64,000 nucleotides of DNA from Tilletia caries (taxonomy: Eukaryota; Basidiomycota; Exobasidiomycetes; Tilletiales; Tilletiaceae), in assembly GCA_032718865.1 (NCBI GenBank), contig JALUTQ010000033.1, positions 62,001 to 126,000 of the forward strand. Direction: 5' to 3'. This document shows positions 5,597 to 63,872 of this stretch, in pieces; position 1 is the first letter of the stretch, and each line of letters opens with the position of its first letter. Position numbers and translations under genes: made by a program. The notes below the pieces were generated by a model that worked only from the letters and a program-made list of their open reading frames with translations, had not been told where the DNA came from and searched no databases.

Positions 5597-5764
5597 CTAG
5601 TCTCGACTACAGTCGTAACAAGGCTCGTATCCAATTTTGGTGTTGTTGTACTCGTCTTCGTCGTCACAGTCATCGCCGCCGCAGGCGGTGAAGCTGCGAT
5701 GCTCCTTGTTGGTCGGCTCGTAGCACCGCGGACAGAGGATGTGGATGACATCAATCTTGCACAT
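5597..5764 (-). CDS. MC-family small cysteine-rich protein 1
   Basis: A 55-residue protein of unknown function and one of six relatives in this window. It begins MCKIDVIHILCPRC and ends EPCYDCSRD. Its cysteine spacing is C-x8-C-x2-C-x13-C-x4-C-x15-C-x2-C. The centre is acidic, and there is no signal peptide or membrane segment, so a cytosolic or nuclear, possibly metal-binding protein is plausible but unproven. The start is chosen because the family always begins Met-Cys. The same frame is open about 65 codons further upstream, but that part is pyrimidine-rich and resembles none of the relatives. No clear TATA box was seen within 200 bp upstream, unlike copies 2 to 5. Confidence 0.7.
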   Translation of the reverse strand: MCKIDVIHILCPRCYEPTNKEHRSFTACGGDDCDDEDEYNNTKIGYEPCYDCSRD

Positions 5765-7330
5765 TATTGTTCTTCTTGACAAGGGTAGGTGCCGAGGGGC
5801 TGTTGAAGCGTTCAGGAGAAGGGAAGGGTGAGACAGATGGGCGAAGCAATTAGGTGGAAGGAGTAGTAGAGGAGAAAAAGAGGAAGAAGGGGTGAGCGAG
5901 GGGTGAGTCGTTAGCTCCCGTGGAGACAAGAGTGAGGGAACCGTGCCCCATCCCATCCTCATCTGCTCTGACTCATTTTGACCGTCGGACCATCATCCTG
6001 TCGGAAGTCGGATGAAGCTCCAGGCTCCAGCAGGACCCAGGATACTTCCGTCCTTCATCGCCTGATCGATGTCACGAGTCACTCGTCCAGCATCCTGCAG
6101 AGGTGAGCGGTGCGATGTAAGAGGTGAGATGTGAAGATGCAGGGTGCGAGATGCGAGACCACGTCGCTGGACGCTTGTGCGTTCTTCCACCGCCGAACTT
6201 CCCTTTGTCCAACGGAGGCCTGCAAGTTGGCTGACAGAGGGCTGAGCTTCCTCCCCTTGTTCGCCGCAGAAGGTCGACTAAGGACTCGCAAGGAACGGAG
6301 CCGCAGAAGCTCTCCTCGCGCAGAACAAGCGGCAGGAAGCTGCTACTCACAGTCATCGACCCTCCCTTTGTACTTCGCAGCAACTTCGACGCCCCGAGTG
6401 CGTAACCGACTAACCGTCCCGCACCTGGATGTCGATGAGGTCAAGAGGGCGTGCGGCATGCCGCAGCACATCTTCACTTCACCAGGACGCTCAAGACTGC
6501 CGCCGCCGCACCCGGGACAGGCAATTCCGTGATTGAGCTGGGATCGACCTACATAGCGAACGACGGAACTACTGTGACGCGAGACTAGACGACCAACGCC
6601 AATCCTAATCCCGACTTGGACCGGCCATCAAGTCGGTATGGAAGATCACGACGGTACGGGTCTTAGCAGAGATTCTCAATCTGGACTGCTCGTACGATGA
6701 CGGCGCTGAAGCCGATGGCAACGCCGGTGCCAACCATCCGCCGCCTTTCCCGCCCACATCGAACTCGCCACCCAGGAGGGTGCGGCCCTGATCGAAGTAC
6801 TTGTGAGTTGTGGCCGTTATCTGCAATAAGATCGAAACGATTGGACGCCAACACGGAGGAAGGCAAAGAGGATCGTAGCATCACCACATCTCCTTGTTAA
6901 GTACAAGACGGATGCGACCCGGATCACGGAACTCCTGCTCATTCCGCAGATTATCAAGCTGGACCAGAATCTCAACCTGAGCGGTCAGCATGTCGTGAGG
7001 AAGCAGGAGCAGTTACATCCGTAGGTGTACCACTGACTGAATACACTCGTATCCTGCAGGCTTTCAAACAACTCGACCTTCTTCATGTCCTATTCGTGCC
7101 TAGGAATCCGACAGTTTCTGAAAACGACGGCATCGCGGCCAACGCTCAACTGGCAGCGACTTTGAAGCTCGTGGTTTTGTTTGAATTACAGAAGCGATGC
7201 GCCAACCATGGTCGAGACCGGGACCGAGCAGTAATTTCAACATCGCAAGAATCTCCTTCCCGCCATGTCGATATAGATGTGGCAATTCAGGTTCAGGCGT
7301 GGGACAGGAGGTTCAAGCTTACGAACCATA
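5765..7330. other. intergenic with a possible gene relic
   Basis: No intact gene. Between about 6640 and 7100 (+ strand) short frames such as a stretch ending HLLVKYKTDATRITELLL, followed by LIPQIIKL, look protein-like and run to a CTGCAG acceptor near 7060. There is a faint resemblance to cohesin SCC3/STAG-type helical repeats. Stops interrupt every frame, so at best this is a fragment of an old gene. Confidence 0.25.
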
Positions 7331-7616
7331 CACATCAAGAAGGACGTTTCTTCTTTCCTCTCCGCGTTTTCACTCAACGCTTTTCTCGATGCTCCACTCT
7401 CTCCATTGTGTCCTTTCTACTGGCGCCGGCTCGTAGTACGTTTATCATTCGGTCCTGCGTCGCTCAGTAGTCCCGCCCGCCCAGGATGACCCACGATCGC
7501 GCTCGGCACGAACGTAATCGAGCCCGCGCCCACCCACCTGGGGTGGGTCTTTCCCATGTTACTTCATTGTCGCCATCAGACGGAAGCCACCTGGGAGACT
7601 GCGGGTGTGCAGCCAA
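7331..7616 (+). repeat. truncated solo terminal repeat, family III
   Basis: This matches the right half of the repeat at 25064-25672, with the same core TGGCGCCGGC, the hairpin-like CCCACCTGGGGTGGGT and the same end, CTGCGGGTGTGCAGC. The layout parallels the family II solo repeats, so it is probably a truncated solo repeat of a related tyrosine-recombinase retroelement. The left part is missing. Confidence 0.6.
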
Positions 7617-7645
7617 ACAAACAAACAAACAAACAAACAAACAAA
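7613..7645. repeat. (CAAA)n microsatellite
   Basis: About eight CAAA units directly abut the end of the truncated solo repeat, so replication slippage may have fixed the repeat boundary. Confidence 0.85.
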
Positions 7646-8716
7646 ATGAGTTGGACGAAGTGATAAGACATACAGAAGAAGAAGAAACGATGGTGAGCAG
7701 CACGCAGTAGATTCCATCAGCATTTTGTTCCTTGGCGCGGTCGCTGAGTAATGCGAAGCATGTTGAATGTCAAGAGGAAGCTGGACTCGACTACTCTCTC
7801 TCTTCTCTTATGTTCTCCAAGTGACCTTAATCATATGCTACGTTCCGCAACCGTGCCACGTCTTTCTGCCTCTGGTGAAAAAGCGGCGTCTGCAGCACTT
7901 CTTCCTTCTGTGATATTGTACTCAACCACCGCGACCCAGTACGCTACTTCATGAACAAACGTGTCATCATCATTGGCTCCAGCGACAGAAGCAAGAGTGT
8001 TGAAGAATCGTTCGAGATCACATTTGGCGATGGATGATAAGGAGAATAACGGCGATGAGAGGGTAAAGAGGCTTTGTGATCGGAGGCGGGTGTTATGGCA
8101 GTCTTGAGAACGTTTCTCAGCTCTCAGTACGATGGCGATGCTGATATCCGTGCCTCAGCGTGAGGTGTACTAACTGAGGCATTGCTTCGTGACCATGCGT
8201 CGTTGTAGCAGATCAGCAAGCGCCGATGTCATTGGGGCAACAAGCACCTTTGGATAGGTTGGGACATCACACATCGCGACACATCTTACACTTGACGGCA
8301 GCGACCTTATCCTTGGGGTAAATGGACTAACAGATCTGGGGGTGTTGCAATAGGAGGAGACAATCATGTTAGGACGTATCCGTGGACAAACATGAGAAGC
8401 CGGTGAAGCTCACTAGTTTATCTAGGGATAAAGATGTACCAGGCAATCGAGGCAGAACGCTGCCGAGCACAAGTTTCCCAATGCGATTGGCAGGTCAGGG
8501 TGCCGACATTTGTTTCTTCGTTCTCCTTGCACCTGTCAAAACAGTCATGGTACTAATGAAAAGGCAGGGTGAAGGGAACGGGTAATGGGTCATTTCCGAT
8601 GCTCACATGTACCGATCAATGGCAGTGTGTGATGCTCACGATTTTCTTGTCGGCGAGGGCCTGAGTGGGCCACCCGGAAAAGAGGACAAGTGCACAGAGC
8701 GAAGTCTCATCGTGAT
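7646..8716. other. no gene recognised
   Basis: Only short frames without motifs, and no structured repeats, were seen up to the start of the solo repeat at 8717. Confidence 0.3.
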
Positions 8717-62785: not shown

Positions 62786-62828
62786 CCATCCTCATCGGGA
62801 CCGAGCTCCTCCAAGAACTACGGAGCAC

Positions 62829-63391
62829 ATGTCAAAGAAGGGGGATGCTTCATATCGCCTCCTCTCCATCACCACCCCTGACCGTCCACTTTCGACACCT
62901 TCCTCGGCCGATCTCGATCCTCGTGCGTATGCCATCAGCAGGCACCCCCATCTTGTCACCGTCTGTGAGTACAAGCATATCGAAGCTATGTGACTGTGAC
63001 TATACTGACCTGTTTTGCTCATCCTGTGATCATCTAGGCAATGTCGTAGCCATGACCGCACCTTCCACCGTCACATCTCCGACTCCCTCCTCCTGCTCAT
63101 GTAAGTTTCGAGCTCACCTGCAGTCATACGCATTGGTCTATCCTGACCCAAACCTCTCGTGCGTTCCATCTCAATCCAGCATTGGATAACCACAGGTCGG
63201 CTCTCGTTTGCGTGACATTTTGTCGTGCTTATAGACGTGTACCTAGATCCCAACCGGAACGAGGACAGCGTTTACACCTCGTCCTTCTCCCCATCTACAC
63301 TCTCATTCTCTTCCTTCGCTCTTCTCTCTACCTCGCTCTTCTCTCTACCAAGCTCATATATGGTGTACCCTACTTCTATATCCAAGCATAG
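62829..63391 (+). CDS. possible three-exon gene, unrecognised
   Basis: A speculative model. MSKKGDASYRLLSITT opens a frame that can be spliced in phase at 62966 (GTGAGT) to an acceptor at about 63038 (ATCTAG), and again at 63101 (GTAAGT) to about 63179 (ATCCAG), ending in a hydrophobic tail (about 63280-63390) that could be a membrane segment. The splice signals are good but the protein matches nothing I recognise, and no promoter is evident. Confidence 0.22.
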
Positions 63392-63659
63392 CCACGCTCG
63401 TTTTGATGTTTAAAACAGTACCGCGCTCCTCCCGGGAGATCTGCTGCCGACCAGAGTGCTGACCCCATTACGTGCAAGTGGAGAGAATTTCTTAAAGGCA
63501 TACTTGTCGTTCAGCGAGTCCACCTTTTTACAGGTCGCCGAAAGAATTCTCCCATCTATGAGCCTGTTTGTTGGACCACGAACAGGTTCTGACCTACGTC
63601 GACAAGTACGTACACATCAACCTCACACATTCTAAAACTTTCCCTTCCAGTGCATCCAG
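63392..63659. other. MC gene 6 upstream region
   Basis: No separate gene. A possible 5' UTR intron (about 63606-63650, GTACGT...TTCCAG) ends ten bases before the MC gene 6 start. Confidence 0.4.
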
Positions 63660-63872
63660 ATGTGCGCAATTATCATCGTCAAGGTCTGCTCTCCCTTCTG
63701 TCGCACCTACATCGACATTTACGCGGACAGAAAACTACCCAGATGCGACTACGAAGACTGCAACAGGACCGTAGAGCGAACGACCGAGGTGGAGGACGTG
63801 GAGGCATGCGATCGTCGTGACAAGGAGAATAACAGTGAGTGGTCGGAACAGATCAATCCTCGCTGTGAGTAG
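63660..63872 (+). CDS. MC-family small cysteine-rich protein 6, divergent
   Basis: A 70-residue protein starting MCAIIIVKVCSPFCRTY. Its spacing is C-x7-C-x3-C-x14-C-x4-C-x15-C, so the second cysteine is shifted by one and the last CxxC is reduced to a single Cys followed by DRRD. It keeps the C-x4-C and x15 spacing and the acidic middle. The tail may be misread: a GTGAGT at 63835 could be a splice donor, which would replace the last 12 residues. It is the most diverged family member and may be losing the pattern. Confidence 0.6.
   Translation: MCAIIIVKVCSPFCRTYIDIYADRKLPRCDYEDCNRTVERTTEVEDVEACDRRDKENNSEWSEQINPRCE

What the first reader, a model, noticed from the sequence alone, without database searches (positions are those of the whole stretch)
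5597..63872. Six dispersed paralogues of a Met-Cys small protein family with fixed cysteine spacing
Genes at 5597-5764(-), 12258-12431, 23203-23376, 48402-48590, 54391-54597 and 63660-63872 encode 55-70 residue proteins that all start MC. Five follow C-x8-C-x2-C-x13/14-C-x4/5-C-x15-C-x2-C exactly; the sixth has one shift and lacks the last Cys. Filler residues are almost unconserved apart from acidity after the fifth Cys. No signal peptide is visible. Six members in 64 kb, interleaved with recombinase transposons, make this a strong candidate for an undescribed, expanding family. The spacing is seen directly; any role (metal binding, protein decoy, effector or defence against mobile DNA) is inference.
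Basis: partly seen in the sequence, partly recalled or inferred. Interest (0 to 1): 0.88.

Follow-up and report, generated by a model that had tools for sequence, protein, structure and literature searches.

The report
Hidden subtelomeric family of seven-cysteine microproteins
Near chromosome ends of what looks like a wheat-bunt fungus lies a large, nearly unannotated family of tiny seven-cysteine proteins, with at least 33 intact copies rather than the six first seen; some copies are strongly conserved while one branch changes faster than its own flanking DNA.

Summary
All six ORFs exist as described; five fit the spacing, the sixth has one shift and lacks the last Cys. Scanning C28:1-256,000, which holds the window, gives 22 such ORFs, all within 196 kb of a telomere, against 0 in ten Markov sequences of that length. 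Eight more lie towards the telomeric end of C1 and three on C25: 33 intact copies, plus six degenerate ones. Relatives exist in Tilletia caries (68 of 68 residues identical to C25 copies) and T. indica (61%), so the genome is probably a Tilletia. No Pfam, NCBIfam or PDB match is convincing. Selection is split: a C25 pair differs by 13 silent and 2 replacement codons, a clade-A pair by 1 and 17 with flanks 98% identical. Best reading: a subtelomeric family of intracellular, treble-clef-like zinc microproteins acting as binding modules, one clade diversifying. Zinc, expression, location in the cell and partner are inferred, not shown.

The parts
5597..5764 (-). Family member, 55 aa (P0001, clade B)
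   Evidence: Translation; three close relatives on C1 at 69-70% identity; purifying selection, w 0.20-0.28 against the C1 copies
12258..12431 (+). Family member, 57 aa (P0002, clade A; C28:74,258)
   Evidence: Translation; pair with 23203 differs by 17 replacement and 1 silent codon
23203..23376 (+). Family member, 57 aa (P0003, clade A; C28:85,203)
   Evidence: Translation; own-genome search; structure model
48402..48590 (+). Family member, 62 aa (P0004), without a close relative in the genome
   Evidence: Translation; own-genome search finds only itself
54391..54597 (+). Family member, 68 aa (P0005, clade C; C28:116,391)
   Evidence: Translation; relatives on C28, C25 and C21
63660..63872 (+). 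Divergent member, 70 aa (P0006), shifted second Cys and no Cys at the last position
   Evidence: Translation; its C1 relative at 56% identity has two in-frame stops
12003..12633 (+). Block shared with 22948-23578 (-255 to +375 around the ATG)
   Evidence: BLASTN 94.9% over 632 columns; 26 of 174 CDS bases differ, 8 of 457 flank bases
22948..23578 (+). Block shared with 12003-12633
   Evidence: As above
12138..12143 (+). TATA-like site at -120
   Evidence: Consensus scan, found at -110 to -123 in 5 of 5 clade-A copies
23083..23088 (+). TATA-like site at -120
12463..12468 (+). Splice-donor-like GTGAGT 46 nt after the last Cys codon, beyond the stop codon
   Evidence: Motif scan; no transcript seen
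23408..23413 (+). Splice-donor-like GTGAGT 46 nt after the last Cys codon, beyond the stop codon
   Evidence: Motif scan; no transcript seen

Best explanation
A subtelomeric, lineage-restricted gene family (relatives found so far only in Tilletia) of microproteins, each a single compact metal-binding domain that begins directly after the initiator Met. Inferred fold: a treble-clef-like unit in which the C11-x2-C14 knuckle and the C50-x2-C53 pair at the start of the last helix hold one zinc, with C2, C29 and C34 fixing the other end of the hairpin, perhaps as a second site. With no clear signal peptide they most likely work inside a cell as protein-binding modules; the acidic surface of most, and the long Asp/Glu tails of five C1 members, favour basic partners. 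Subtelomeric duplication makes copies and lets others decay. Several clades are kept by purifying selection, whereas clade A changes its non-cysteine residues faster than its flanks, as expected of modules that track a changing partner. Shown: the family, copy number, spacing, location and the two divergence patterns. Inferred: zinc, site in the cell, binding role, partner, and that selection drives clade A.
For: 33 intact copies; 30 of 33 lie within 293 kb of a contig end that carries telomere repeats (C28, C1). Gaps 1, 2 and 6 are 8, 2 and 2 in 32 of 33. Coding: C25 pair 13 silent against 2 replacement codons, C1 clade-B pair 5 against 1; clade-B CDS 80% identical between C28 and C1 with flanks at 56% (p 2.2e-9). 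Clade A: 17 replacement and 1 silent codon with flanks at 98% (CDS against flank p 1.4e-9); C28:135,059/190,977 CDS 64% with flanks 77% and 85% (p 5.2e-6); the contrast with the C25 pair has p 2.3e-6. Seven conserved Cys (an odd number) with two C-x2-C knuckles, and a model with three strands and a final helix starting at the last knuckle (pLDDT 82.1, pTM 0.54). Net charge negative in 28 of 33. Relatives in two Tilletia species.
Confidence: 0.5

Rival explanations
1. They are effectors that leave the fungus by an unconventional route and act in the wheat cell; diversification of clade A is an arms race with the host.
For: Genus of crop pathogens; subtelomeric, fast-changing small Cys-rich proteins are a classic effector profile (recalled). 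All members start Met-Cys, the kind of N-terminus that plant cysteine oxidases act on (search listing with abstract starts).
Against: No clear signal peptide in 32 of 33 (11-residue hydropathy at most 1.77; one copy 2.35); conserved Cys number is odd and spaced like zinc knuckles; several clades are under strong purifying selection. Cys2 keeps a fixed distance to Cys11, which suggests a structural rather than an N-degron role.
Confidence: 0.22
2. They are genes of internal conflict (drive, allorecognition or control of mobile DNA) that persist at chromosome ends.
For: Clustered duplicates and decaying copies near telomeres beside reverse-transcriptase and recombinase ORFs; protein-level diversification in one clade.
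Against: No constant association with any element in the 256 kb examined; no toxin-antidote architecture was seen; relatives exist across two species.
Confidence: 0.15
3. Clade A's pattern is not selection: flanks were homogenised by gene conversion, or the coding part was exchanged with a diverged paralogue. (This concerns clade A only and can hold together with any role of the family.)
For: Subtelomeres recombine (general knowledge); differences come in patches (codons 3-7, 21-23); flank identities in clade A vary between pairs in a mosaic way.
Against: In the 12258/23203 pair 39 of 40 unchanged residues also keep their codon, which is little for a block taken from a donor as distant as the other clade-A pairs (dS 0.21-1.14). 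The number is small, so this is not excluded.
Confidence: 0.3
4. Metal storage or detoxification, metallothionein-like.
For: Cysteine content and small size.
Against: Seven conserved Cys in 50-123 aa with fixed long gaps and no conserved Cys-x-Cys; the model is folded.
Confidence: 0.04

Closest known systems
Unnamed proteins of Tilletia caries (P0007; UniRef name 'Zinc finger PHD-type domain-containing protein') and T. indica (P0008, CF326_g3565)
   Same: True relatives: P0007 is 68 of 68 identical to a C25 copy; P0008 is 46 of 75 identical to C28:131,224, the same seven Cys positions included.
   Different: They are single catalogue entries without a described family or function.
PHD and RING fingers
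   Same: Spaced C-x2-C pairs; the A1 profile matches NOT4 and RBBP6 RING chains at E 0.29-4.5.
   Different: Those have eight ligands (recalled); here seven Cys and no conserved His.
Treble-clef and zinc-ribbon domains, including small archaeal and bacterial CPxCG proteins
   Same: Two knuckles, strands and a last helix in the model; the 9fhl_C match covers profile positions 1-15.
   Different: Match limited to the knuckle; no significant fold match; three further conserved Cys.
Subtelomeric Cys-rich effector families of fungi (as a kind; recalled)
   Same: Multi-copy, chromosome ends, fast change in some members.
   Different: No clear signal peptide; odd Cys number at knuckle spacing; strong purifying selection in several clades.

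Membership tests
PHD finger (the UniRef name of the T. caries relative) | C4HC3 ligand set with a conserved His (recalled definition) | tested here: not met
   Seven conserved Cys; His occurs in 16, 4, 17, 5, 10 and 0 of 32 members in segments 1-6, so in no segment in all members; no PHD model is among the 15 Pfam families matched by any of 32 rows at E <= 0.1.
RING finger | Eight zinc ligands in cross-brace order (recalled) | tested here: not met
   The middle pair is missing; among Pfam models only Prok-RING_4 appears, in 1 of 32 rows at E 0.086.
Treble-clef or zinc-ribbon fold | Two C-x2-C knuckles | tested here: met
   C11-x2-C14 and C50-x2-C53 in 32 of 33.
Treble-clef or zinc-ribbon fold | Knuckle, hairpin and helix with one metal held by both knuckles | tested here: inconclusive
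   Model has strands 2-10, 17-27, 37-45 and helix 51-56, but no significant fold match; metal not modelled.
Secreted small Cys-rich effector | N-terminal signal peptide | tested here: inconclusive
   Hydropathy only: at most 1.77 in 32 of 33, 2.35 in the 63660 copy; no predictor was run.
Metallothionein | Very high Cys content with repeated Cys-x-Cys | tested here: not met
   Seven conserved Cys, no conserved Cys-x-Cys.
Subtelomeric multigene family | Copies cluster near telomeres | tested here: met
   30 of 33 within 293 kb of telomere-bearing ends of C28 and C1; C28:196-256 kb has none. The other three are on C25, whose end shows no repeat. Most of the genome was covered only by protein searches whose counts are lower bounds.

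The most novel reading that the evidence does not exclude
A subtelomeric repertoire of intracellular zinc microproteins works as a variable recognition set: a fixed cysteine cage and conserved promoter with a selected, variable surface, comparable in logic to variable-domain repertoires, and it has almost wholly escaped annotation in its genus.
Probability: 0.3. Interest if true: 0.82.

Novelty: new variant of a known kind. Interest (0 to 1): 0.62.

Why it matters
At least 33 intact copies in one fungal genome fit no family that I could find. In a catalogue of about 5.8 billion proteins, P0003 gave no candidate, a ten-row profile nothing at E <= 10 and a 32-row profile two Tilletia entries (the search needs shared exact words, so more may exist). 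Gene sets used to study bunt fungi therefore probably lack most of a fast-moving family. The contrast between clades makes a sharp question testable: why the same small scaffold is under conserving pressure in one clade and changes faster than its flanks in another.

Full report
Observation. The six ORFs translate as reported. A mechanical scan of the window for MC-starting ORFs with at least five Cys returns all six, two internal restarts of the 12258 and 23203 ORFs, and five ORFs of quite different spacing. Five of the six carry the stated spacing; the 63660 copy has gaps 7,3,14,4,15 and no Cys at the last position.

Genome and extent. The window is G000:C28:62001-126000 of a genome of 38,104,258 bases in 40 contigs. 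I fetched C28:1-62,000 and 126,001-256,000 and scanned the 256 kb by script: 22 ORFs match the loose pattern, from 3,469 to 195,746, none between 196 and 256 kb; ten Markov sequences of equal length gave 0. The contig begins with CCCTAA repeats. Twelve single-protein searches of the whole genome (counts are lower bounds by the tool's own note) point to further members on C1, C25 and C21. In the loci returned I count 8 intact on C1 (2,016,642-2,256,268, i.e. 53-292 kb from an end with TTAGGG repeats), 3 on C25 and one truncated on C21. Total 33 intact. Degenerate: four C1 remnants like C28:195,573, without an MC start in the frames read, one C1 relative of the 63660 copy with two in-frame stops, and the C21 truncation: six. 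Two weak hits on C32 and C35 are not members.

Spacing and charge. In 32 of 33 (all but the 63660 copy) gaps 1, 2 and 6 are 8, 2 and 2. Gap 3 is 13 in 22, 14 in 7, 12 in 2, 15 in 1; gap 4 is 4 in 24, 5 in 7, 6 in 1; gap 5 is 15 in 26, 14 in 2, 16 in 3, 22 in 1. Asp precedes the fifth Cys in 19 of 32; net charge is negative in 28 of 33. Five C1 members carry Asp/Glu-rich tails, net charge -27 to -43; three C25 members are basic and two C28 members neutral.

Organism and relatives. P0003 alone had no candidate; a ten-row profile had none at E <= 10 among 127 candidates. A 32-row profile found two proteins among 88 candidates: one of Tilletia caries (E 2.1e-12) and one of T. indica (E 8.3e-8). 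The first is identical over 68 of 68 residues to a C25 copy, the second over 46 of 75 to C28:131,224. A published T. caries assembly has 38.18 Mb in 46 contigs (PMC10684912, passages), close in size to this genome. I take the genome as a member of the T. caries group; the isolate is not shown.

Coding and selection. Nei-Gojobori counts on the core up to the last Cys. C25 pair: 13 silent, 2 replacement codons, w 0.04. C1 clade-B pairs: 5 and 1, 4 and 1, 1 and 0. Clade B between C28 and C1: w 0.20-0.28. C28:116,391/140,327: w 0.36; C28:55,323 and C28:140,327 against others in clade C: w 0.09-0.18 where dS could be computed, several being saturated. Acid-tail C1 members: w 0.48-0.83. Clade A (3,469; 74,258; 85,203; 135,059; 190,977): w 0.42-1.36 over 10 pairs. 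In the pair 74,258/85,203, the window's 12258 and 23203 copies, 26 of 174 CDS bases differ but 8 of 457 in the shared flanks (p 1.4e-9); 17 codons are replaced and 1 silent. Random placement of 26 changes gives 4.19 silent codons on average and P(<=1) 0.065, so that count alone is not significant. C28:135,059/190,977 also has its CDS below both flanks (64% against 77% and 85%, p 5.2e-6). In clade B the reverse holds: CDS 80%, flanks 56% (p 2.2e-9). In 10 of 10 clade-A pairs the CDS is less identical than bases -150 to -1, but in the 190,977 pairs with 74,258 and 85,203 it is not below bases -250 to -151 and is level with the 3' part. Pairs are not independent.

Gene structure. All 5 clade-A copies carry a TATA-like site 110-123 bases before the ATG. 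In 23 of 33 the MC codon is the first in-frame ATG after a stop; in 10 an earlier in-frame ATG exists; for 12258 and 23203 the nearest one lies 52 codons upstream, before the TATA-like site. A donor-like motif lies within 160 nt after the last Cys in 24 of 33, against 21% of random 160-nt stretches; in 18 of 33 it is at +38 to +53 (counted). Copies are related, so these are not independent, and no transcript was seen.

Surroundings. The window also holds a Tra1-like gene in five ORFs, reverse-transcriptase ORFs and a 1277-aa ORF with a weak phage-integrase match. No element accompanies the family members constantly.

Novelty. No Pfam or NCBIfam model fits, and no paper in the listings and passages that I saw describes it. 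Expanding subtelomeric families are a known kind; a zinc-like scaffold without a clear signal peptide and with opposite divergence patterns in different clades is a new variant of it.

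Noticed in passing
34398-47764 (+): A Tra1-like gene read as five ORFs (Tra1_central, Tra1_ring, FAT, PI3_PI4_kinase matches), a core gene lying inside the family-rich region.
   Followed up: partly
56654-60487 (-): A 1277-aa ORF with a weak Phage_integrase match (E 0.0033, under the cut-off); two relatives at about 25% identity at C28:79,874-80,584 and 156,401-157,396.
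   Followed up: partly
1497-2672 (+) and 19313-20482 (-): Reverse-transcriptase ORFs (RVT_1); only the first was searched for copies and it has no other match of over 100 aa in C28:1-256 kb.
   Followed up: partly
22791-22946: A 156-bp stretch just before the 23203 gene block recurs at 93-99% identity near several other members on C28 (e.g. upstream of 149,910 and 185,580); it may be the end of a dispersed repeat.
   Followed up: no
L022, L023, L024, L030 (C1): Four similar remnants of a C28:195,573-like member lie beside four acid-tail genes on C1, suggesting that a multi-gene block was duplicated.
   Followed up: partly
L018 and L019 (C25:1,240,596-1,242,950): Two members with identical proteins in opposite orientation about 2 kb apart.
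   Followed up: no
L054 (C32:483,301-483,900): A weak hit whose frame reads like a HIT-type zinc finger (recalled) shares the C-x8-C-x2-C spacing at its start.
   Followed up: partly
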